From contig RBNI01003144.1 of NCBI GenBank assembly GCA_003990745.1, positions 1 to 16,549 on the forward strand: a stretch of 16,549 nt of DNA, written 5' to 3'. The DNA is from Jimgerdemannia flammicorona (lineage: Eukaryota; Mucoromycota; Endogonomycetes; Endogonales; Endogonaceae). The notes beneath the pieces are model-generated. The model was given only the letters and a program-made list of their open reading frames with translations, did no database searches and had not been told where the DNA came from. The translations under genes were made by a program, and so were the position numbers. Position 1 is the first letter of the stretch. Every line of letters begins with the position of its first letter. Shown in pieces: positions 2,687 through 16,549 of the stretch.

Positions 2687-3497
2687 AGTTCTGAAGAACT
2701 TCACTATATTATATTATATTTATTTATTTACTATTTTAGATTTTTTATTATAAATATTTAAAATTAAAAATTATTAACTATTATAAACTATAATTTCATA
2801 ACTTATAATTTTATAACTTATAAATAATACAAAATTTAATAAAATATTTTATTTCAATATATTTTAATATTAAGAAAAGCTTTTTAACTTAAAAATTTAA
2901 TTTTTAGTACTTAAGGCAAATATTTAATTTTTTAATTATTTAGAGTTAATATTTTTAACTTTATATTAACTATAATTTATTTACTTATAATATTAAAAAT
3001 TTTAAATATAAATTTATTACTTTTAATTTATTCATAATAGTTATAAATTATAACTAATATTTAAAATAATATATAAAATTAATATAATTAGTAATAATAG
3101 TAATAATAATTATAATATTAGTTATTTTAAATAATTAAAAAAAAGTTAATTAATAAAAATAGTAATCAATTAAATTAATAATTATAAATATTATAATAAT
3201 ATAACAAATATCTGTTATCTCTTAGATGATAATATAATCAAATTTGACTACAAATTTTTGAAAATTCATAAGTCTGAAATCATAATAACTTTTTAAAAAT
3301 ATTTTAACTATTGATTTTTTATACTCTTTTTTTATCTCTAGGTAAAATTTTATCAGAAAAAAAAAAATAAAAATAAAAATAAAACTTGAAAAAATCAAAT
3401 TTTTTCAATTAAAAAATCAATACTAAAAACATATTCCTATAATTACTATTTATGAGATATAAATTTGAATCTTACATAAATCTTAGACAAAGAGTAC

Positions 3498-3787
3498 AAT
3501 ATATCTATGAATATTTATCCAAATTCAATAAAACAAAGTGTACTATATTTGTCTAATTAAGAGCCTTCCAGCAATATAAGTATATTTAATTTAGACTAAT
3601 ATTTAAGAAAAAGATTAACAAAATATCTATAGGTCATAGTTGTGCTGATTCTGTAATAGTTTTTGTTAAATTTTTTCATAAATACTTATAAAAATTAAAT
3701 GAACCCTATATTGCTGAAAAGCTCCTAATCAGGCAAATATAGTATACTTTATTTTATTGAATTTGGATGTATATTTATGGATATATT
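3498..3787. repeat. Second long inverted repeat (foldback-like)
   Basis: The left arm from about 3498 contains CCAAATTCAATAAAACAAAG, TACTATATTTGTCT and CCAGCAATATA. The right arm contains the reverse complement of each, ending near 3787. Pairing continues inward through a TTTAATTT and TTAACAAAA block, giving arms of about 140 bases around a centre near 3643. The arms differ mainly by transitions. Pairing may continue outward in a weaker form. It shares no obvious sequence with the foldback at 2345-2686. Confidence 0.6.
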
Positions 3788-4150
3788 AGGCGATTTATAT
3801 TGATTGTTTTTGTTTTTTCCAAATTAGAATATAATTTGAATTGTTTAATTCAAATCAGATTCACATTATACAAACTCATTCAAAGTACTATTATATAGTA
3901 TATATATATCTTATTTATATCTCTAATTTAACTCAATATATTATTTATAATAAGTTAATATAGTTTTAGTAATTCATAATAATATTACTTTAAAGCTAAT
4001 TATCTTATTTATAATTTTTATAGTAGTTTTTATAGTAAAAGAAGTTTATTAATTTAAATATTGATTATTTATTACTTAAAATAGTTATTTTATTCTTTAA
4101 ACTTTTTAGATTATAACTTATTTATTTTAGTTATTAGAATATAATATAGT

Positions 4151-4153
<3 letters not shown>

Positions 4154-4194
<41 letters not shown>

Positions 4195-4218
4195 TTTTTT
4201 TTTTTTTTTTTTTTTTTT
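4154..4218. repeat. Poly-T tract (possible minus-strand poly-A tail)
   Basis: Sixty-five bases of T with a single A at 4193. Read on the minus strand this is a poly-A tail at the 3' end of the degraded sequence to its right, which would suit a LINE-like or other poly-A retroelement. A plain homopolymer is the alternative. Confidence 0.7.
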
Positions 4219-5326
4219 ATAAGTACTACAATACTTTATTCTATTAAGTTCTATATACAGCAAAATGTTCTCATATTATATTAGTAGTAAACTATTTTAT
4301 ACAAAGAAGATATAGATCAGCAGTTTTCAGTAAGACTATTAGCTAATATTTTTTTCTATCTTATCTTCTGATTATCTAATATTAAGTAGTCCTGACTTCT
4401 CAGTATAATCTTTTATGTCTTTTTAAAAATACTCAATTGATTTTACTTTCTCTGATACTACTACTCCTATACTACTTCTTGGAGTAATCACAGTCATCTA
4501 TCTACTAACTCTCTATTCCTATCTATTATCTCTCATCAAAAACTCATTATTAATGAGTAATCATTAGAATTCAGATACTCAGAATCTGTCCAACACTACT
4601 CTACACACACCTGTCTTCTCTATCAACCTCCTCCTAATTACTATTCTGATGATATCTTTTAATCTTCTATATCAGAGCAAACTACTAAGAAATACTTTAA
4701 TATCTATACTATATCTCCTTAAAGCTCTATATACTATTTATAATCACAATAGTCATCTGCTTTCATTCAGTCTATTTGGTAACTTAGTATGATATTTTTT
4801 TCTCAGAAATTATTACTATACTATCTAGTATCTAAGAAGTAGAAAGTCTACTCAGTACCAACTTTTAAATATTACTAATCTCTGTCTTCTACCAACTAAC
4901 TGATTATCTCTCAAGAAAGTCTACTCTCATCTATTCTATTATCTCTCTTAATGAGAATCTCTCTAAGTTTCAATCTCTAATTTAGTACAATTATAGCTTC
5001 TCTTAATTTCTCTCAGAATTTTCTCCATCTTTTATCTCTAACCTAGCCAGACCTATGGTCAATTAGACCTTAATCATACTTAATCAAAACCTCTTATACT
5101 ATAGTCTACTAATACTCTCTATCTGGAGAAATATTTTCAAATTCTTCTATTTTATATTATAGAAGTAAAATCTAATCTCCAAATTGTCTACCCTGCCTCT
5201 CCTCTCCTAAGTCCACCAATCTTTGTCTCTATTAGTCTCAAAGAATCTTTAGTTTTCTTTAAAATTCCACCAGATCCAAGCCCACATTAGTTACTTATAC
5301 ATATTACTAATATCTCTCAACTAATC
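4219..5326 (-). pseudogene. Heavily decayed element-like sequence, unidentified
   Basis: About 1.1 kb that is C- and T-rich on the plus strand and poor in G, with no CpG seen. Read on the minus strand it is A/G-rich. One frame shows long arginine- and lysine-rich segments between many stops, as expected from a coding element ruined by C-to-T changes. No catalytic motif was recognised in any frame. Its left edge is the poly-T tract and its right edge is the terminus of the older LTR. A LINE-like retroelement in minus orientation is a reasonable guess only. Confidence 0.3.
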
Positions 5327-5772
5327 TGTAATAACTCTCACTTCTACCTCTCTCTTATCCTTTGGATAATTAAGGAAGTAAAACTATTACTTAGAGACTT
5401 AGTACACAATATATATCAAGAAGTCTTCAGTTTGAGGAAGTACTCACTTAAAAGTAGTTATAGCAACAGTGCCTTATCTTTTAAAGGTCTTTCTCTTTTG
5501 CCCTATCTTTCAAGAGTCTTGTTCTTTGCTGTATACAGACTGAATTCACCTTAGAATTCAGGTTCAATGGGTTTACTTAAGTCTTTTAAAGATTTATATA
5601 CTGGTCTCAGTTCTGGCAGAAGTTAGCTAGGCTTTTGGAGTTTAGTCAGAAACACTAGAGTCACTTAGATGTCATTACTAAGACTCAGGAGAATGTGTAT
5701 ATATAGGGAGGACTTGATTTTTGTATCAAGGACTAAACTAAAACTGCTTTATTTCAGATGGAAACTGGGGAT
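5327..5772 (-). mobile_element. Older LTR, outer part (split by insertion)
   Basis: This is the reverse complement of the second half of the LTR family seen at 5773-6524. It starts with TGTAATA (the mirror of the LTR's terminal TATTACA) and reads inward through U5, the poly-C tract (as G's), the AATAAA region and the GTTTCC segment. It breaks off at the GGGAT duplicated by the younger insertion. The remaining part of the same LTR resumes at 14833. The joined length is about 762 bp. It is the 3' LTR of an inverted older copy whose internal region lies to the right of the younger element, so sequence left of 5327 is outside that copy. Confidence 0.9.
5768..5772. repeat. Target-site duplication GGGAT, left copy
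   Basis: The five bases before the 5' LTR are GGGAT, identical to the five bases after the 3' LTR (14833-14837). A 5-bp duplication is normal for Ty3/gypsy integrase and fixes the element boundaries. Confidence 0.9.
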
Positions 5773-5818
5773 TGTAATAGAATGAGGCGCGACGAGCGAT
5801 CATGTGACCCAGAGGTGA

Positions 5819-5826
5819 TGACGTCA
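5819..5826. promoter_or_regulatory. CRE-like octamer in U3
   Basis: A TGACGTCA palindrome, the consensus of ATF/CREB bZIP sites, lies about 250 bp upstream of the TATA box. The equivalent site in the 3' LTR reads TGATGTCA, a CpG-to-TpG change. A role as a stress-responsive enhancer is inferred. Confidence 0.35.
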
Positions 5827-6067
5827 TCATACAATCGAGCACGGCATATGAATAACGAATGACGAACGAACAAACGATGTGAAAACGACGTGAAAAATGA
5901 TATCCAGCTTATCCCCAACAATCGGCGCCGCAGCAACAGTTGCCACAGCAGCTGATCATTGCCTAGTAATTGAGGTCTTGATCACAAAGTTGTTTTTGCC
6001 AAAAACCACCTCATTATAGTTACCAAATTAGTCACTCATACTTAGTCAGAAATCGCAGACCAACTTG

Positions 6068-6074
6068 TATAAAT
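6068..6074 (+). promoter_or_regulatory. LTR core promoter TATA box
   Basis: TATAAAT is followed by a C-run and then GAAATAAAG. It is conserved at 14377-14383 in the 3' LTR and, on the other strand, in the split older LTR, where the younger element inserted right beside it. Transcription would start some tens of bases downstream and define the U3/R border. The nearby AATAAA at 6095-6100 (14404-14409 in the 3' LTR) could serve as the polyadenylation signal in the 3' copy. Confidence 0.6.
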
Positions 6075-6527
6075 ACCCCCCAGTTTCCATCCGAAATAAA
6101 GCAGTTTTAGTTCAGTCCTTGATACAAGAATCAAGTCCCCCCCCCACATACACACATTCCCTTGAGTCTTAGTAATGACACCTAAGTGACTCTAGTGTTT
6201 CTAACTAAACTCCAGAAGCCTAGCTAACTTCTGCCAGAACTGAGACTGGTATATAAATCCCTAAAGACTTAAGTAAACCCAATTGAACCTGAATTCTAAG
6301 GTGAATTCAGTCTGTGTACAGCAAAGAACAAGACCCTTGAAAGATGGGGCAAAAGCGAAAGACCTTTGAAACAGAAGACATTGCTGCCATAATTACTTAT
6401 AACCAAGTACTTCCTCAAACTGAAGGCTTCTTGGTATACATTGTGTACTAAGTCCTTAAGTAATAGTCTTACTTCCCTAATTATCCAAAGGATAAGAGAG
6501 GGGTAGAAGTGAGAATTATTACAACTT

Positions 6528-6545
6528 GGTAGTAGTAGATTACTA
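6528..6545 (+). promoter_or_regulatory. Candidate primer-binding site
   Basis: Three bases after the 5' LTR the sequence reads TGGTAGTAGTAGATTACT. A TGG start complementary to the CCA end of a tRNA at this spot is standard for minus-strand priming in Ty3/gypsy elements. I cannot name the tRNA: the site may carry C-to-T changes, and no fungal tRNA was compared. Confidence 0.45.
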
Positions 6546-6624
6546 GCCAGGAAGGCACCAAAGAACATACTCCTGAAGATGAAACAAGACTAACCTTGGA
6601 CAGGAGTAACCCCCAGAATCAACT

Positions 6625-8420
6625 GTGAATCCTCAAACCAGAGCCAGAGAAGCCTTTGCCATTAGGACCAGGTGGTACCAGGAAACCACAGACCCAAGGA
6701 CCCACCAGCTTGTAATTGACCAGGCTTATAAGAATCTATACCAGGCCTTTAGGACATACCACCCAGGACTTAGAAATATTGTCAGCCACCATAGGTTCTA
6801 TGAACTCCTCTGAGGACACATTAGAACCACTAGAACCCCAGAATCTACTGCTGCAGCCACCCAGGATTTTCTAAATTATATCACACCCCCTGCTGTAAGA
6901 GAAGCAGCTACTGAGTGGATTGCTTCTGACAGATATCATCATACCCCTACCAAGACCTCCCTCTACTACAGGCTAGTTGTATATTATGCCTCTGCCATAA
7001 CCAGGTATGAGAATGAGTAAGCAGACCACCCATCCCCTACTGCTGAATAAGAAGTAAGCCCATATACCCAACCAGAGACTGATATCCTCTTTAAGGGATC
7101 TAGTCAGTATGAGGATGTACTATCTCATCAGGAAAGGGAGTCAGATGAAGACTCTATAGGTTACCAGTCTGAGAATAGCCAATAAGGAACAGCAGGCCTA
7201 GGAATTTACCAAGGAACCACAGGTCAAGAAGACCAGACCCCAAAACCAACCTAGCCACCTATACAAAGGTTTTATCTACTCTCTCTCACAGGACTCTTTG
7301 ATCTGATATCTGGGAATCAAGTAACTCCAAGTCATACAGCACTACAACCCCACCAAGCAGAACAATCTTCAGAAGAATCTACCTCAATAGACCCACCACT
7401 AATAGTCAACACAATGGTAGATGTCAACATTGCAGCACCAACTATCTAGCTAGCAGCACTAGCAAGGATAGTAGAACAGATTGCTGAACAGAACAAACCA
7501 ACCAAGACCTTGTGAATCTAAACATTTAGTGAAAAAAACAGTGACATCAAAAACTTTATCAATGTAGTTGACACAGACTACTGAGCAAACCAATGGAATG
7601 ACAACTGAGTGTCTATAGGAATGCTCACAAACAACTAGAATAACATCCTTCAATAGCTGTTTGCTATCTCAGTAGCTCAAGTGGAAACAGTAGCCACATT
7701 CTTCACTAGAACAGCAGCTGAATTCTGGCAAACCTTGGAACAACACCCAGTAACCTGGGAAGACCGCTCTCAAGTCAATGGACAAGCTTCTGCCAATAAT
7801 AGACCAGATTGAGATGACTACGAAGCAGGCCCAGGACTCAAGGCCTTGCTACTGACCAAATTCCGAAATGTGGCCTATATACAAGAGACTTGGAACAAAC
7901 TGTCCAAGATAAAGTTCCACAAGAATGGTGAAGAGGATCTAGAGACCTTTGCTACCAGAATGGATGCCTATCTCAAAACTATTGGACTTACCTACCAGGA
8001 GAACAATTTGGCCATCAATGGGACTAGAGCTAATCATCTTTTTGCAGCCCTACCAGACTGGCTCATCCAGAAGATTAAGGAACAAGAACTTCCCCAAGGA
8101 TACCCCCACTACTCATGATGCTTTGCCTAAGTACAAAGAAGAGCCCATGAAATTCTTGCTGCACAAGCTCTACGAAATCAAGAACACAAGAAGAATAACC
8201 AAGATAGAAGGAATCTTACCAGAAGGAATGACCAGAGAAATGAGCAAAGATATGATCAAAGGAATGATCAAAGAAACTAGCAAAACCCCAGAGGTCTCAG
8301 ACCTCCCACTGAGGATGAAAAGAAGTAGCTCTACTAAAAGGAATTGTGCTTCATCTGCAAGAAAGCAGGACACATCTCATTCAAATGCCCCAAGAAGAGA
8401 AACAGATCAGGCAAACTCAG
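6625..8420 (+). pseudogene. gag: Gag region with CCHC zinc knuckle
   Basis: The N-terminal part (6625-7015) is charged and aromatic-rich, followed by a Ser/Glu/Gln-rich variable stretch. A capsid-like core spans about 7680-8110, with TAAEFWQTLE and KLSKIKFHKNGEEDLETFA, resembling the retrotransposon Gag core that forms the particle shell. An Arg/Asn/Gln-rich basic segment (8170-8290) leads to CFICKKAGHISFKC at 8347-8388, a perfect C-x2-C-x4-H-x4-C knuckle for RNA binding. About nineteen stops interrupt it, most in the variable middle. It shares the frame of the downstream domains, so no programmed frameshift would have been needed to make Pol. The Gag N-terminal segment before the core is not one I recognise. 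Confidence 0.8.
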
Positions 8421-8514
8421 TAACCAGAACATTACTGTCATTGGAGAAGGTCCAGGGAAGAAGAACCTTGAGAATGTTATCAAAGTACAGAAGATATAGT
8501 ATAAGGCTACTATT

Positions 8515-8892
8515 CCCACTAAGGCCCACCCAACTGATGCTGGAAATGACCTCTACAGCAGTCAAGACCTCACCATTCCACCAAGTATCAATGCTACAGT
8601 ACAAACAGAAATTGTAATACAAGTCTCCAAAGGAATATACATTTGTCTTGCTGAGCAAAGCAGCCTAGCCAAAGAGTTCAACATTGGGCTAGGAAGAGGA
8701 GTAGTTGACCAAGGATTTACTGGCAAAATCTATATCATATTGCAAAATTTTAGAGACACATCATTTAAAGTCAAAACAGGTCAAAGGATTGCCCAAGCAA
8801 TTGTTGAAGAAATCTGTCAAGATCTCACCATTGAAGAAGTCCTCAAGCTCTCTCAGACAGACTGTTGCAAGAAAGGGTTTGAATCAACCAAC
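8515..8892 (+). pseudogene. dUTPase-like domain fused between Gag and protease
   Basis: About 125 codons with the five motifs of trimeric dUTPases in order and at plausible spacing. Motif 1 is DAGNDLYS (8536-8559), motif 2 EQSSLA (8653-8670), motif 3 GVVDQGFTGKI (8698-8730) with the catalytic Asp at 8707, motif 4 GQRIAQAIV (8779-8805) and motif 5 KKGFESTN (8869-8892). The family hydrolyses dUTP to dUMP and pyrophosphate, limiting uracil in cDNA. Motif 2 has Gln where Arg is usual, explained by CGA to CAA. Motif 5 departs from GFGSTG at two glycines, one explained by GGA to GAA. Motif 3 has Phe where Tyr is usual, which is not a deamination change and may be ancestral. The domain itself has no stop. 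It is in frame with the zinc knuckle before it and with the protease after it. The motifs make chance resemblance unlikely. Confidence 0.88.
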
Positions 8893-9213
8893 AAACCTCT
8901 CAGTCAAAAGGTCACTACTATGAAGGAAGATGATGAAAACTGATATAAGAGAATTGTAAATGGTTATGTACCATTTGGACAATACTCTCATTCTATTAGA
9001 ATGTACTGCATGGAATATATTGGTGAATGCCATGCATGCCTCTCCAAAGTTTTCAAGATTCAATCTGAAAAGTGCCAAGCCCAACAGACTGAGGAACCCA
9101 AACAAGACAACTCTTCTTATGAAGGATGGAAAGAAACTGACTTCAAGAAGACTGACAGCAATTGGGATAATAATGAGGATGAAGAGCTCAATACTATCAA
9201 GAAGAAGCACAGT

Positions 9214-9495
9214 TGTATCAAATTCACAGGCCAAGTCCACAGACAGAATGTCAATGTCTTGCTTGATAGCAGTGTTACTGGAATCTATATCAGTATCAAG
9301 ACTGCTAAGAGGATTGGAGCCCAAAGCAGACCTGCCACTGAGAAAAGAAGTGTTACCTTTGGTGATGGCAAAACTGCACCATTGACCAAAATCTGTGAAG
9401 ATCTCTTACTCAAGATTGGCAAATATCAAGAGAAGTTGGACTTCAGCATTGTAGACCTCCCAGGATAAGACATTATCCTAGGAAAAGCCTGGTTG
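9214..9495 (+). pseudogene. Retropepsin-type aspartic protease domain
   Basis: The active-site segment reads VLLDSSVTGIYIS, where D-S-G-A-T is expected. The catalytic Asp (9265-9267) is kept, but Gly and Ala of the triad loop are replaced by Ser and Val, both consistent with G-to-A and C-to-T changes. The second signature, DIILGKAWL at 9469-9495, matches the conserved D-x-I-L-G-x-x-W-L of Ty3/gypsy proteases and directly follows a TAA stop (9466-9468). This enzyme would release Gag and Pol products. An acidic, Lys-rich linker (9070-9210) joins it to the dUTPase. Confidence 0.8.
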
Positions 9496-9834
9496 ACCCA
9501 GCATAACCCAGACATCAACTGGAGAACCAATGAGGTTAACCTGACCCATGAAGGCAGAAAGATCACCCTGACACCCCAGGAAGGTACCAACTACTAAGGA
9601 ATTGAAATCATCTCTGCCATTCAAATGAAGAGACTCTCTCAAAAAAAGGGAAACACCTACTTTATTTGTACAGTACAAGAAGTCACTGAAGCTATAAGTA
9701 GCCCAATTTCAACAGAAGCTCAAGAACTGTTTGAAAAATTCCAAGATGTATTTCAAGATCCTCAAGGACTTCCACCCAAGCACCAAATCTAACATGGAAT
9801 TGATCTTATTCTAGGATCTGAACCCCTATACGAG

Positions 9835-10440
9835 AGTATCTATCAACTGGCCCAACCTGAGCTCAAGACCCTCAAGGATGAATTGACCAAACTACTGGCC
9901 CAAGGATATATTGAACCCAGCTGCTCTCCATTTGGAGCCCCCATTCTATTTGTCAAGAAGAAGGATGGTTCTCTGCAAATATGTATTGACTACAGAGCCC
10001 TCAACAAGATTACAATCAAGAACTGGTATGTCTTGCCTAGGATTGATGAGTTACTATACCAAATCTTCAAGGCCAAGACCTTTTCTCTACTGGATTTGTG
10101 AAATGGCTACTACCAGATTCTCATTGACAAGAAGGATATTGAGAAGACAGCTTTCTGAACATGGTTTGGACACTACCAGTTCTGAGTCATGCCTTTTGGT
10201 TTGATCAATATACCAGCAACATTCTAGTATCTGATGAATGATATCTTTGGACCACTTCTCAACATCTGTATCCTTGTGTATATTGATGATATACTAATCT
10301 ACAGTAAAACAGTAGAGCTACACTACACTCATCTCAGACAAGTACTGACCCTTCTGCAAGAACACCAGCTCTATGCCAAGATGAGCAAATACAAGTTCTA
10401 TCAAGATCAGATTGAGTACCTAGGACATATCATCTCTGCT
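9835..10440 (+). pseudogene. Reverse transcriptase domain
   Basis: Motifs in order are [16 protein letters not shown], then [12 protein letters not shown], then a LDL-stop-NGYYQ segment (R lost to TGA at 10099-10101), then MPFGLINIPATF followed by TAG, then the catalytic box YIDD at 10279-10290, then YLGHIISAEGI near 10420. The order and wording are those of Ty3/gypsy RTs. Five stops fall between 10099 and 10230, three of them at arginine or glutamine positions of the family. The catalytic Asp pair is intact. RT copies element RNA into DNA in the particle. Confidence 0.93.
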
Positions 10441-10689
10441 GAAGGTATCAATGTGGACTCCCGAAAGGTATCAGCTCTCAAGAATATTCCTATTCCCACT
10501 ACTCTCAAGCTACTTCAGTGCTTCCTGGGGATTGCTGGTTACTACCAAAGGTTTATCCAAGGATACTCTGCTATTGCAGCTCCATTGACCAGTCTGGCCC
10601 ACAAAGGAGTGAACATCAAAACTAAATGGACTCCTGAATGCACCCTAGCTATGGACCATCTCAAGAGACTTCTTACTGAGGCCCCAGTG

Positions 10690-11070
10690 CTAATTGCACC
10701 TAACCCTACCAGGCCATTCACTCTGACCACAGATGCCTCCAACATTGCCATTGGGGCAGTGCTCAGCCAAGAAGACTGCCCAGTGGTCTATCTTTCCCAA
10801 AAGCTCAAGCCAGCTGAGACCTGGTATACCATCCATGAGAAGGAACTCCTGGTCATTGTTACTGCACTCTAGGAATGGTGCTATTTCCTCCTAGGACAAC
10901 TATTTATAGCCTACACTGATTACTATGTCCTGTGGTATATTCATACACAGTCTATGCTGACCCACAGACAAGTCTGCTGAATGGAAATCATTACCAACTT
11001 TGATATGGAAATCAAGTATATCCCAGGCAAAACCAACCATGTAGCTGATGGTTTCTCCAGGTATATAGAA
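10690..11070 (+). pseudogene. RNase H domain and connection to integrase
   Basis: The first catalytic Asp sits in LTTDASNIAIGAVLSQ (codon 10732). The Glu is in HEKELLVIVTAL near 10840-10870, followed by TAG, and a TDYY segment near 10915 stands where TDH is usual. The tether motif IPGKTNHVADGFSR (near 11025) closes the domain, as in Ty3/gypsy elements. Stops are at 10870-10872 and 10978-10980. The enzyme removes RNA from RNA:DNA hybrids during minus-strand synthesis. Confidence 0.88.
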
Positions 11071-12399: not shown

Positions 12400-12605
12400 A
12401 GAAATTCGAAATTGAGGAAGTACTTGACCACAAGGTCCGCAAATATCCCAAAACAGTCAAGTGGTTTTTCCTGATCAAGTGGAAGGGTTACCCCATCTAT
12501 GACACTACCTGAGAAAAGGAAGAAACTCTGAAGAATGCACACAAAGCCCTCCAGGACTACATGGAAACACTCACCCCCCAGCAAAGGAAGGAGCTGCAGC
12601 TCTAA
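12400..12605 (+). pseudogene. C-terminal chromodomain
   Basis: FEIEEVLDHKV is followed by WFFLIKWKGYP, then TT, a TGA where the conserved Trp is expected, and EKEETLKNAHKALQDY, ending at TAA 12603-12605. Chromodomains at the integrase C-terminus define chromoviruses and bind methylated histone H3 to direct integration into heterochromatin. Two of the aromatic-cage positions look plausible (WFF and W-K-G-Y), but the TGG-to-TGA change truncates the copy. The last residues are basic and glutamine-rich. Confidence 0.88.
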
Positions 12606-13248: not shown

Positions 13249-14070
13249 ATGCCTGCTATCTGCTGCCAAACTGCCTCCCATAGCCAGCCCCTCCCAAGCC
13301 AGGTTGACTGCCTCTTTGGCCACATTCAGGTTGCTATCCAAGAAAGGAACTGCCACTCTGAGGCCCTTAACCTCTCCAGCCCAGATCTAGGACAGTATGT
13401 CCTCAACTGCCATGAACTTATTGAAAGAGCCTACCTTGCCACCAGCCACCTAGAGATCTGATATGAATATAAAATTAGTTATCAACTCCTCTAACATACA
13501 AATAGCCTACCCACTGACCAGGTCTCTAACTGGACCCACCTGGACAGACATGAGCAAAGACTTGCCAAGAAGGTCTATCAAATCATGCACCATGCATCTT
13601 TTGCAATCTCCAACCTCAACTACATATAACTGAAGGACTTTCAGAACCTCTTCTTCTCTGAGGTTGATGCCCTAGAAACCAAGGTCGCCCAAGAAGCTAA
13701 CTCCTGGATTGCTCTTAAGTCTACTAACCGCAAACCCTACTGGAGCCCCCTCCTGAATGACAACCTAGACCAATGGCTCCAAGGCCTCTCTGACCTCTTT
13801 GAAGGACCCTCTATCTGAATGGATATTTCCAGGCATGAGGATCAAGAATCTTACTTGGATGGTCTCAATCACATCAGATAGAGAACCTCTACACCAGTAC
13901 CTATCCCAATGTAAGAACCATTTGCAGACCTCATTGATGTCTCCATCCTGGAAAGTGAGCCATCAGTGACCACCTCTCCTGCTACTGAAGAAGATGGCAA
14001 CAACTCTGATTCTCCACCTTTCTCTCCCCTGGTTCTAAATTTCTGAATCAACAAGGAAGTTGATTTCTAA
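13249..14070 (+). pseudogene. ORF3, extra 3' reading frame, unknown function
   Basis: A single frame of 273 codons runs from ATG 13249 to TAA 14068-14070, ending at the polypurine tract. Seven internal stops (13459, 13492, 13627, 13816, 13879, 13912, 14044) all fit changes from Q, R or W codons. The N-terminal third is Cys/His/Gln-rich with CLFGHIQVAIQERNCHSEA. The middle is charged and probably helical (QRLAKKVYQIMHHASFAISN). A Trp-rich part follows (SWIALKSTNRKPYWSPLL), and the C-terminal tail is acidic and Ser/Thr/Pro-rich (SVTTSPATEEDGNNSDSPP). No signal peptide or membrane segment is visible, so it is not a typical envelope gene despite its position. The same frame occurs in the older copy (15165-15992). 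I recognise no family. Confidence 0.75.
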
Positions 14071-14081
14071 GGAAGGAAGGA
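14069..14081 (+). promoter_or_regulatory. Polypurine tract
   Basis: AAGGAAGGAAGGA lies directly before the TG of the 3' LTR. It would prime plus-strand synthesis after RNase H cleavage. The older copy has a pyrimidine-rich mirror at about 15154-15165. Confidence 0.85.
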
Positions 14082-14832
14082 TGTTATAGATTGAGGCATG
14101 ACGAGTGATCACGTGACCCAGTGGCAATGATGTCATTATACGATCAAGTGTAGCATATGAATAATGAATGACAAATGAATAAATGATGTGAAAATGATGC
14201 GAAAAATAATATCCAGCTTATCCCCAACAATCAGCATCATAGCAACAGTTGCTACAGCAGCTGATCATTGCCTAGTAATTGAGATCCTGATCACAAAGTT
14301 GTTTTTGCCAAAAACCACCTCATTATAGTTACCAAATTAGTCACTCATACTTAGTCAGAAATTGCAGACCAACATGTATAAATACCCCCCAGTTTCTATC
14401 TGAAATAAAGCAGTTTTAGTTCAGTCCTTAATATAAGAATCAAGTTCCCCCCCCATACATACACATTCCCCTGAGTCTTAATAATGACACTTAAGTGACT
14501 CTAGTGTTTCTGACTAAACTCCAGAAGCCTAGCTAACTTCTGCCAGAACTGAGACCAGTATATAAATCTCTAAAGACTTAAGTAAACCCAATTGAATCTG
14601 AATTCTAAGGTAAATTTAGTCTGTATACAGTAAAGAACAAGACCCTTGAAAGATAGGGCAAAAGAGAAAGACCTTTGAAACAGAAAGCACTGCTGCTACA
14701 ATTACTTATAACCAAATACTTCCTCAAACTGAAGGCTTCTTGGTACATATTGTGTACTGAGTCCCTAAGTAATAGTCTTACTTCCCTAATTATCCAAAGG
14801 ATAAGAGAGAGGTAGAAGTGAGAATTATTATA
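14082..14832 (+). repeat. 3' LTR
   Basis: It starts TGTTATA and ends ATTATTATA, one base change from the TATTACA end of the 5' LTR. It aligns with 5773-6524 throughout. Most differences are CG in the 5' LTR against TG or CA here, concentrated in the first 170 bases. The TATA box (14377-14383), AATAAA (14404-14409) and C-run are kept. Confidence 0.93.
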
Positions 14833-14837
14833 GGGAT
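14833..14837. repeat. Target-site duplication GGGAT, right copy
   Basis: Identical to 5768-5772. Together they bound the younger insertion. The joined target reads, on the minus strand, TATAAAT followed by ATCCC and the GTTTCC part of the LTR, so the insertion lies just downstream of the older element's TATA box. Confidence 0.9.
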
Positions 14838-15153
14838 ATTTATACAATTTAGTCCATAATTTCTAAGTGACTAATTTGGTAACTATGGTGAGATTTGTGA
14901 TCATGATATCTATTGCTAGACAATGATCAGCATTGCTGTGGCACTGGTTACTGTGGTGTCAATTACTGTAGTGCTGGTTGCTATAGTGCTATACTATAGT
15001 GCTAATTATTGGGGATAAGTTAGATATTGTTTATTTGCATTATTCACATCATTTGTTATATTCATAATATTATATGTCATACTTGATCATATGATGACAT
15101 CATTGTCTGGTCACATGATTACTCATTGCATTTTGTCTGTTCACTTTATTACA
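14833..15153 (-). mobile_element. Older LTR, U3 part (split by insertion)
   Basis: Reverse complement of the first part of the LTR, from the TATA box (seen as ATTTATAC) back to the TG end, seen as TTATTACA ending at 15153. It contains TTATTGGGGATAAG, which matches the reverse of the U3 CTTATCCCCAACAA segment, and GGTCACATGATTACTCATTG, which matches its start. A short repeated GTGCTGGT-like expansion near 14940-14990 and a small insertion near the end make it slightly longer than the younger LTRs. CpGs are essentially absent. Confidence 0.88.
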
Positions 15154-16549
15154 TTCTTTTCTCTTTAGAAATCAATGTTCTCATTGATTTGGAAATTGAG
15201 AACCAGGGGAGAGAAAGATGGGAAGTCTTTCTTAGTATTGTTGCTATCTTCTTCAGTAGCAGAGAGGGTGGTTACTGATGGCTCACTGTCCAGAATAGAG
15301 AAGTCAATGAGGTCTGCAAATGGTTCTTATATTGGTATGAGCACTAGTATAGGGGTTCTTCATCTGATATGGTTGGGACCATCTAAGTAGGGTTCTTGAT
15401 CCTCATTCCTAAGGATATCCATTCAGATAGATGGTCCCTCAAGAAGATCAGAGAGGTCTTGGAACCATTAATCTAAGTTATCATTCAGAAGGGGGCTCCA
15501 GTGGGGCTTAATGTTAGTAGACTTGAGAGTAATCCAAAAGTTGGCTTTCTGGGCTACTATGATCTCTAATACATCAATCTTAGGGAAAGAGAGGTTCTGG
15601 AAATTCTTCAGTTAGACATAGTTGAGATTGGAGATTGCAAAGAGTACATAGTATATGATTTGATGGATCTTCTTGGCAAGTCTTTGCTCATGTCTGTCCA
15701 GGTGGGTCCAGTCTGAGACCTAGTCAGTGGGTAGGCCATTTATATGTTGAAGAAGCTGGTGACCAATTTTGTATTTATACCAGATCTCTAGGTAGCTAGT
15801 AGCAAGGTAGGACCTTTTGATGAGTTCACAGTGGTCAAGGATATACTATTCTAGGTTCTTACTGGAGAGGTTAAGAACATCAGAGTAGCAGTTCCTTTCT
15901 TGGATAGCAATCTGGATGTATCTAAAGAGACAGTAAATCTGGCATGGGAGGGGCTGGCTATAGCAGACAGTTTGGCAGTAGGTAGCAGATATTCTTATCT
16001 TGTCTTTTCTTTATGAAGAGAGGGGGATGAGGGTTGTTGGGTATTCTTACCTTGAATATTTATACTTATTCACCTGTCTGGTGTAACCTTCTTTTGATCA
16101 TACTTTTTATCAGAATGTGTGACCTGTTACTATAAGCAGAGCATGTACTGGTCACATGAGAAAATCCTGATTTCAAAGATATTGCTACTTGTAGTTATAG
16201 TTACACAGAGTTAATAGATCTTAGTTCTCTTTTTTTTTTTTTATTAGTATATTTATAAGAACTGACCATCCTTGTCTAGGGTGAGAGCTCTCATTGTTGT
16301 GGTTGGGGGTTTGAACCTTTTGGAAATAGTATTTCTTATAATCTGAGCTAATTCCTAATAATAATATCTATCACATAGATGGGCTTAGATTGGTTTTGAT
16401 ATTGTCAGCTTTTTTAAGTATCTGTCATCATCTAGTAGAAATGACACAGATAGCATAAAATGAAGTTGTTCAAATACATTTTGCTATACTGTACTAGATT
16501 GTTCTTCACTTGAGTATCTTCTTGTTGGTTAACTATAGTGTTTTTTTTT
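15154..16549 (-). mobile_element. Older element copy, 3' internal region (truncated by window)
   Basis: Inverted counterpart of about 12683-14081 of the younger copy, starting with the polypurine mirror and running through ORF3, its TATA-like box and the spacer up to the window edge. Matching landmarks include TCCAGGTGGGTCCAG near 15700, CCTGATTTCAAAGATATTG near 16166 and AGATTGTTCTTCACTTGAGTA near 16496. It has essentially no CpG and more transitions than the younger copy. Its gag-pol part must lie beyond 16549. Confidence 0.88.
15165..15992 (-). pseudogene. ORF3 remnant of the older copy
   Basis: Minus-strand counterpart of 13249-14070. The stop codon TAA (seen as TTA at 15165-15167) is kept. 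The start is ATA instead of ATG (seen as TAT at 15990-15992), a G-to-A change. The middle is broken by several stops and small indels, and the length is close to that of the younger ORF3 (828 against 822 bp). Its presence shows that ORF3 is a family trait, not a chance capture in one copy. Confidence 0.7.

What the first reader, a model, noticed from the sequence alone, without database searches (positions are those of the whole stretch)
8515..8892. dUTPase-like domain embedded in a chromodomain Ty3/gypsy polyprotein
All five motifs of trimeric dUTPases appear in order, in frame between the CCHC knuckle and the aspartic protease. Virally encoded dUTPases are well known in some retroviruses, where they sit in or next to protease or within pol. 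In Ty3/gypsy chromoviruses the usual order is Gag-PR-RT-RH-IN-CHR with no such domain. A capture between Gag and PR would suggest an element adapted to replicate in uracil-rich nucleotide pools, possibly linked to deamination-prone cDNA. I do not know whether this arrangement has been described in fungi.
Basis: partly seen in the sequence, partly recalled or inferred. Interest (0 to 1): 0.82.

Follow-up and report, generated by a model that had tools for sequence, protein, structure and literature searches.

The report
dUTPase inside a fungal retrotransposon
A mobile element in a probably fungal genome really does carry its own dUTPase, the enzyme that keeps uracil out of new DNA, between its coat and protease parts; such elements were already described in fungi, and this copy has decayed.

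Summary
Confirmed. Window 8515-8892 matches Pfam dUTPase almost end to end (E 5e-26, 91 bits). It lies in frame between the CCHC knuckle and the aspartic protease of a decayed Ty3/gypsy chromovirus with LTRs 5773-6523 and 14082-14832 and a 5-bp target duplication. The slot is regular: in 38 of 38 Gag-RT pairs that could be measured (of 150 Gag places) the spacing leaves room for it, and 18 of 20 copies chosen by Gag carry it. Shared transversions in its frame are synonymous (0 N: 5 S in those 18, p 2e-4; shifted frames 6 N: 0 S), so it was selected while the element spread. Three further families in the genome carry a dUTPase, two in the same slot, one apparently between PR and RT. dUTPase-bearing fungal chromoviruses are in print (Novikova 2010, PMC2864245), one with the domain at the N-terminus of Pol; NC-dUTPase-PR is also the betaretroviral order (PMC4531489). 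So: a new member of a known kind. Decay is C-to-T on both strands alike, so single-strand cDNA deamination is not supported. Side finding: a Cys/His-rich module without a Pfam match beside the dUTPase in three of four families.

The parts
5773..6523 (+). 5' LTR, 751 bp, TG...CA
   Evidence: 683 of 752 aligned positions equal to the 3' LTR
14082..14832 (+). 3' LTR, 751 bp, TG...TA
5768..5772 (+). target-site duplication GGGAT, left copy
14833..14837 (+). target-site duplication GGGAT, right copy
6527..6540 (+). putative primer-binding site (begins TGG) just after the 5' LTR; tRNA not identified
   Evidence: sequence printed; inference
14066..14081 (+). purine-rich tract before the 3' LTR (putative PPT)
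   Evidence: sequence printed; inference
7414..8262 (+). Gag (at least; relative P0003 extends further upstream), broken by stops
8347..8388 (+). CCHC zinc knuckle (NC)
   Evidence: PF00098 E 1.7e-4 on 8338-8496
8515..8892 (+). dUTPase domain, no stop inside, residues of three motifs altered
8938..9048 (+). Cys/His-rich module directly after the dUTPase (decayed here, one stop)
9220..9600 (+). aspartic protease
   Evidence: PF13975/PF13650 (below cut-off)
9703..10870 (+). reverse transcriptase and RNase H
   Evidence: relative L065
11280..12300 (+). integrase; frame changes between about 11376 and 11574 in this copy
   Evidence: zinc finger only; relative L065 matches rve and H2C2
12405..12590 (+). 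chromodomain (Pfam match covers its first part; a stop follows)
   Evidence: PF00385 E 1.7e-5

Best explanation
The segment is the dUTPase domain of a chromodomain Ty3/gypsy LTR retrotransposon, placed between nucleocapsid and protease in one Gag-Pol frame. Likeliest working: Gag-Pol packs the domain into the retrotransposon particle; the protease frees it, perhaps still joined to NC as in betaretroviruses; it forms the usual homotrimer and splits dUTP to dUMP and pyrophosphate beside the reverse transcriptase, so that little uracil enters the cDNA. Shown: domain identity, slot, regular presence in the family, purifying selection on shared transversions, predicted dUTPase fold of a close relative. 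Inferred: trimer, catalysis, cleavage pattern, benefit. The window copy itself is probably dead: stops, a frame change and altered motif residues, mostly of the kind left by C-to-T decay of inserted DNA.
For: Pfam PF00692 E 5e-26 in the window, 9e-31 in copy L065 and 5e-33 in metagenome relative P0002. AlphaFold model of P0002: dUTPase part at pLDDT 81-97 by blocks of ten; the 50 Foldseek rows printed (of 521 with E <= 10) are all dUTPases, best human 1q5h E 6e-14. Slot: among 150 listed Gag places, 91 pair with the downstream C/H module at 541-700 nt and 38 with RT at 1560-1632 nt, none shorter by a dUTPase (111 of 150 module and 82 of 150 RT places were entered, and of the rest 105 were checked and give no further pair). 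Selection: in 18 copies chosen by Gag, shared transversions N0 S5 (p 2e-4) against N6 S0 in both shifted frames; pooled 50 copies N4 S12 (p 1e-6). Family 3, same slot: 30 of 30 fetched loci.
Against: No activity shown. A stop lies inside the domain in 22 of 32 copies chosen by dUTPase or open frame and in 18 of 18 chosen by Gag. Motif 1 and motif 3 Asp are kept in 32 of 32 of the first set but only in 15 and 16 of 18 of the second; the motif 2 Arg in 15 of 32 and in none of the 17 readable. Transitions show weak constraint in the domain (ratio 0.73-0.76, p 0.03-0.07). The 32-copy set favours conserved dUTPases by how it was picked; hence the Gag-chosen control, which I picked by hand from the lower end of the list. 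2 of 20 of those lack the domain at the expected place.
Confidence: 0.82

Rival explanations
1. The domain is kept as a structural or NC-partner module (dUTP binding, particle assembly or signalling) and not for catalysis.
For: Motif 2 Arg and motif 5 Arg vary greatly among copies; motif 3 has Phe where the eight compared proteins outside family 1 have Tyr.
Against: The varying Arg codons are mostly CGA-type codons hit by C-to-T decay; motif 4 Arg is kept in 32 of 32 and 18 of 18 copies, the motif 3 Asp in 32 of 32 and 16 of 18; the motifs recur in families only 36-43% identical to family 1.
Confidence: 0.12
2. A passenger: a neutral host-gene fragment carried along with one burst of copies.
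For: Families with very many copies in one genome can carry passengers; single (late) variants in the domain look near neutral (N15 S5, p 0.30).
Against: Shared variants show selection in frame only; three other families carry a dUTPase; relatives elsewhere keep the same order.
Confidence: 0.03
3. The dUTPase counters deamination of cDNA by host deaminases.
For: The element is heavily C-to-T mutated and CpG-poor (CpG o/e 0.098 against 1.1 in two host gene loci).
Against: C>T and G>A rates are equal, 0.086 and 0.083, in the order CpG, CpA, CpC, CpT: decay of double-stranded inserted DNA, of the RIP or 5-methylcytosine kind. dUTPase does not remove uracil already in DNA (established enzymology).
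Confidence: 0.03

Closest known systems
dUTPase-containing chromoviruses of Postia placenta, PosPlaTy3-3/-4/-5 (Novikova 2010, PMC2864245; passages read); also cited there, not seen by me: Phanerochaete (Novikova and Blinov 2008), Tuber Tmt1 (Riccioni 2008)
   Same: Fungal Ty3/gypsy elements with a dUTPase; PosPlaTy3-3 has it at the N-terminus of Pol, presumably the same slot
   Different: No sequences compared here; the C/H module is not mentioned in the passages read
Betaretroviral NC-dUTPase (Hizi and Herzig 2015, PMC4531489; passages and section 9 read)
   Same: Order NC-dUTPase-PR; dUTPase directly after the nucleocapsid
   Different: Betaretroviruses join NC and dUTPase by a gag-pro frameshift (recalled); here one frame runs from Gag into PR. 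Different element class; no membership claimed
Bdelloid rotifer Juno/Vesta/TelKA (Rodriguez 2017, PMC5408684; passages read)
   Same: LTR retrotransposons with dUTPase; Juno has an extra Zn knuckle after it, compare the C/H module here
   Different: dUTPase between PR and RT; no chromodomain
Metagenome/transcript polyproteins P0136 (1111 aa), P0149 and others
   Same: Gag-CCHC-dUTPase-PR-RT order (CCHC profile match in P0136, not in P0149)
   Different: dUTPase of P0136 only 39% identical to family 1 although RT is 65-68%

Membership tests
Trimeric dUTPase (PF00692) | Profile match over the whole domain | tested here: met
   E 5e-26, positions 6-128/129
Trimeric dUTPase (PF00692) | Five motifs in order with catalytic Asp in motif 3 | tested here: met
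   Motif 3 Asp in the window, in 32 of 32 and 16 of 18 copies; window copy altered in motifs 1, 2, 5
Trimeric dUTPase (PF00692) | dUTPase fold | tested here: met
   Model of relative P0002, not of the window copy; 50 of 50 printed Foldseek rows
Trimeric dUTPase (PF00692) | dUTP hydrolysis, homotrimer | not testable with these tools
   needs expression
Ty3/gypsy chromovirus | LTRs, target-site duplication, order PR-RT-RH-IN | tested here: met
   RT of relative L065 nearest to Ty3 RT 4ol8 among solved structures
Ty3/gypsy chromovirus | Chromodomain C-terminal to IN | tested here: met
   PF00385 25.1 bits = cut-off, first 30 of 53 positions
Fungal host | Host genes nearest to fungi | tested here: inconclusive
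   RPB2 piece: six yeast-type chains at 396-399 bits, next group 326-328 (most organisms recalled); PF08407 and PF20152 searches rang nowhere, uninformative
Betaretrovirus | Env and gag-pro-pol frameshifts | not tested
   the order resembles it only; not filed there

The most novel reading that the evidence does not exclude
dUTPase and the Cys/His-rich module form a cassette that has been exchanged between retrotransposon families and moved between slots: DUT-C/H lies between NC and PR in families 1 and 2, C/H-DUT between PR and RT in family 4, and family 1 joins a P0136-like RT to a family-2-like Gag and a dUTPase unlike that of P0136. The module would be a new zinc-binding partner that tethers the dUTPase to nucleic acid, as NC does in betaretroviruses.
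Probability: 0.25. Interest if true: 0.55.

Novelty: new member of a known kind. Interest (0 to 1): 0.36.

Why it matters
It is a multi-copy case that an LTR retrotransposon outside the retroviruses depended on its own dUTPase: the domain was under purifying selection while the element spread, in a genome where several dUTPase-bearing families coexist, apparently in two slots. That makes testable, outside retroviruses, why some reverse-transcribing elements bring their own uracil control. The NC-dUTPase-PR order in these elements and in betaretroviruses suggests convergence on tethering the enzyme near cDNA synthesis.

Tried and rejected
Searches that led nowhere: viral-contig scan with L065 (nothing); PF20152 and PF08407 for host lineage (nothing rang in the host or in any control, uninformative); tRNA and Rfam scans of the window (0). 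RT tree: 1 of 13 inner branches starred, too weak to use. First selection count was spoilt by misaligned ends of truncated copies; replaced by the masked count. One search counted 20 Gag-chosen copies, two of which (L081, L087) do not align at the domain; left out, so 18. The host's own dUTPase gene was not recognised (only 150 places are scored per call, and I did not examine the flanks of each).

Considered and rejected: chance match; passenger DNA; single-strand cDNA editing.

Full report
Observation. The translation of 8515-8892 is one open stretch and matches Pfam dUTPase over almost the whole profile, E 5e-26, 91 bits; 65 distinct PDB sequences match at E 0.001 or better (60 shown), cellular eukaryotic enzymes first.

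The element. Two 751-bp LTRs, 5773-6523 and 14082-14832, start with TG and end TTACA and TTATA; 5-bp copies of GGGAT flank them. They differ at 69 of 752 aligned positions, 64 of them transitions. The inserted element is 9,060 bp. It seems to sit inside the LTR of an older, related element on the other strand, pieces of which lie at about 5326-5770 and 14833-15120, followed by that element's internal part to 16548 (inference). Domain order by Pfam on stop-free pieces: CCHC, dUTPase, protease, RT/RNase H, integrase zinc finger, chromodomain. The integrase core piece gave no Pfam match in the window; relative L065 matches rve and H2C2.

Copies in the same genome. The genome (134.8 Mb, 7,754 contigs, unnamed) yields 150 scored matches of 4,881 first-look candidates for the window dUTPase and 150 of 5,391 for PF00692; only 150 are scored per call, so real numbers are unknown. 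Four families were told apart. Family 1 (window): NC-DUT-C/H-PR-RT. Family 2 (one locus, L067): the same order. Family 3 (L068 1658-3697): NC-DUT-PR-RT in one open frame of 679 aa; 30 of 30 fetched loci belong to it and show CCHC before and PR after the dUTPase (they were fetched because they matched dUTPase). Family 4 (one locus, L068 about 6500-8028): PR-C/H-DUT-RT (its PR and module were read by eye from the translation).

Is the segment ever missing? A test not selected on dUTPase: 150 listed Gag places against C/H module places and RT places. 91 Gag places have a module downstream at 541-700 nt, 38 an RT at 1560-1632 nt; none is about 378 nt shorter. I had entered 111 of 150 module and 82 of 150 RT places; of those left out, 38 and 67 were checked and give no further pair, two were not. 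Gag places without a listed partner say nothing, because each list is cut at 150. Of 20 Gag-chosen places fetched, picked by hand from the lower end and leaving out copies already sampled, 18 carry the domain where expected; L081 and L087 do not align there, L087 apparently through a larger internal deletion.

Selection. Because C-to-T decay is heavy, transversions were counted apart, and variants shared by two or more copies (mostly from the time of spread) apart from single ones (mostly later decay). 32 copies (window, 29 picked by dUTPase similarity, 2 by open frame): dUTPase shared transversions N0 S8 (p 2e-6), protease N0 S3, RT N2 S2, Gag N8 S9, NC N3 S1 (not significant), linker after the dUTPase N6 S1; shifted frames show no constraint. 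That set is biased toward conserved dUTPases, so 18 Gag-chosen copies were used: N0 S5 shared (p 2e-4), N15 S5 single (p 0.30, near neutral), shifted frames N6 S0 each; pooled 50 copies N4 S12 (p 1e-6). Transitions give only weak constraint (ratio 0.73-0.76, p 0.03-0.07). Site numbers are small and related copies are not independent, so the p values are rough.

State of the copies. Stops arise mostly where other copies have CGA, CAA/CAG or TGG codons. 10 of the 32 copies have no stop in the domain, two of them fetched for their long frames; of the 18 Gag-chosen copies none. Motif 1 Asp, motif 3 Asp and motif 4 Arg stand in 32, 32 and 32 of 32 and in 15, 16 and 18 of 18; motif 2 Arg in 15 of 32 and 0 of 17 readable. 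The decay runs equally on C and G (0.086, 0.083) in the order CpG, CpA, CpC, CpT; element CpG o/e is 0.098, two host gene loci 1.1. This is a double-strand process such as RIP or 5-methylcytosine deamination of inserted DNA. It gives no support to cDNA editing.

Relatives elsewhere. P0002, from a JGI metagenome, is 94% identical over 84% of the L065 Gag-dUTPase piece; P0003 90% over 35%. Searching with the family 3 NC-DUT-PR stretch gave 271 proteins, 120 listed. I picked 20 for profiling; in 10 of 10 the dUTPase follows Gag/CCHC or precedes PR as far as each protein extends (P0160 and P0182 end after it). P0170 and P0171 have DUT-PR-RT; P0163, P0173, P0187, P0190, P0192, P0196 and P0236 have the dUTPase after PR; P0195 between RT and IN. 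P0004 is Gag-CCHC-DUT. So the slot varies among elements and this one recurs.

Origin. In a 46-row dUTPase tree families 1, 2 and 4 fall together (96/84) and family 3 with the P0136 group (99/92), with long branches and a warning for the join of families 2 and 4. Holding family 1 with the family-3-like rows (16 rows) costs 10.6 log units, AU p 0.235; adding family 2, 17.4, p 0.14: one capture is not excluded. Yet family 1 is 65-68% identical to P0136 in RT and only 39% in dUTPase, whereas P0136 and P0142 are 72% and 67%, and family 3 and P0136 57% and 55%. Family 1 Gag matches family 2 (36% over 231), and P0136-type Gag only at the knuckle. By BLAST the family 1 dUTPase is nearest to P0187 and P0173 (46-47%), not to family 2 (42%). 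Integrase cannot be compared fairly: P0136 ends before the core. This looks like a mosaic, but unequal rates could also do it.

Cys/His module. A core of 33 residues with five Cys and three His in the better family 1 copies follows the dUTPase in families 1 and 2 and precedes it in family 4. Families 1 and 4 share 21 of 32 compared positions (best of 20,000 shuffles 9), families 1 and 2 14 of 32, 2 and 4 16 of 31 (the cores were picked by a pattern, so the shuffles flatter the match). No Pfam match; by a strict pattern 1 of 245 fetched proteins, P0002, has it. Within family 1 its selection signal is not significant, a result against functional importance.

Structure. AlphaFold on P0002 (485 aa) is poor overall (mean pLDDT 61, pTM 0.36) but good over the dUTPase (81-97 by blocks of ten); the 50 Foldseek rows printed are all dUTPases, best human 1q5h, E 6e-14.

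Literature. Searches, in an open-licence library. Novikova 2010 (passages) settles that dUTPase in fungal chromoviruses, in several slots, was known. Llorens 2009 (PMC2774666, passages) likens the betaretroviral dUTPase to that of fungal chromoviruses. PMC6431247 (passages) reports the PR-RT slot in planarian giants; PMC11105155 (passage) dUTPase domains enriched with TE-related families in Entomophthora muscae. The C/H module was not searched for in the literature.

Verdict. A real, once-selected, now decayed dUTPase in a chromovirus Gag-Pol; a new member of a known kind. Host: an RPB2 piece is nearest to yeast-type chains, so a fungus is likely; the species is unknown.

Noticed in passing
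8938-9048; L067 about 3480-3580; L068 about 6735-6835: Cys/His-rich module beside the dUTPase in three of four families, after it in two and before it in one; no Pfam match.
   Followed up: partly
5326-5770 and 14833-16548, minus strand: Older related element into whose LTR this element seems to have inserted; gives the large inverted repeats.
   Followed up: partly
whole element; Extreme CpG loss (o/e 0.098) and strand-symmetric C-to-T decay in the order CpG, CpA, CpC, CpT; two host gene loci keep CpG o/e 1.1.
   Followed up: partly
L068 1-8500: A family 3 copy shortly followed by a family 4 copy with its dUTPase apparently in the other slot (PR-DUT-RT).
   Followed up: partly
1-130 and 4079-4218; 1188-1650: Other inverted and direct repeats left of the element.
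   Followed up: no
L075 (C3007): Mitochondrial-type COX3 reads through with TGA as Trp; two further COX3-like stretches nearby on the same contig.
   Followed up: no
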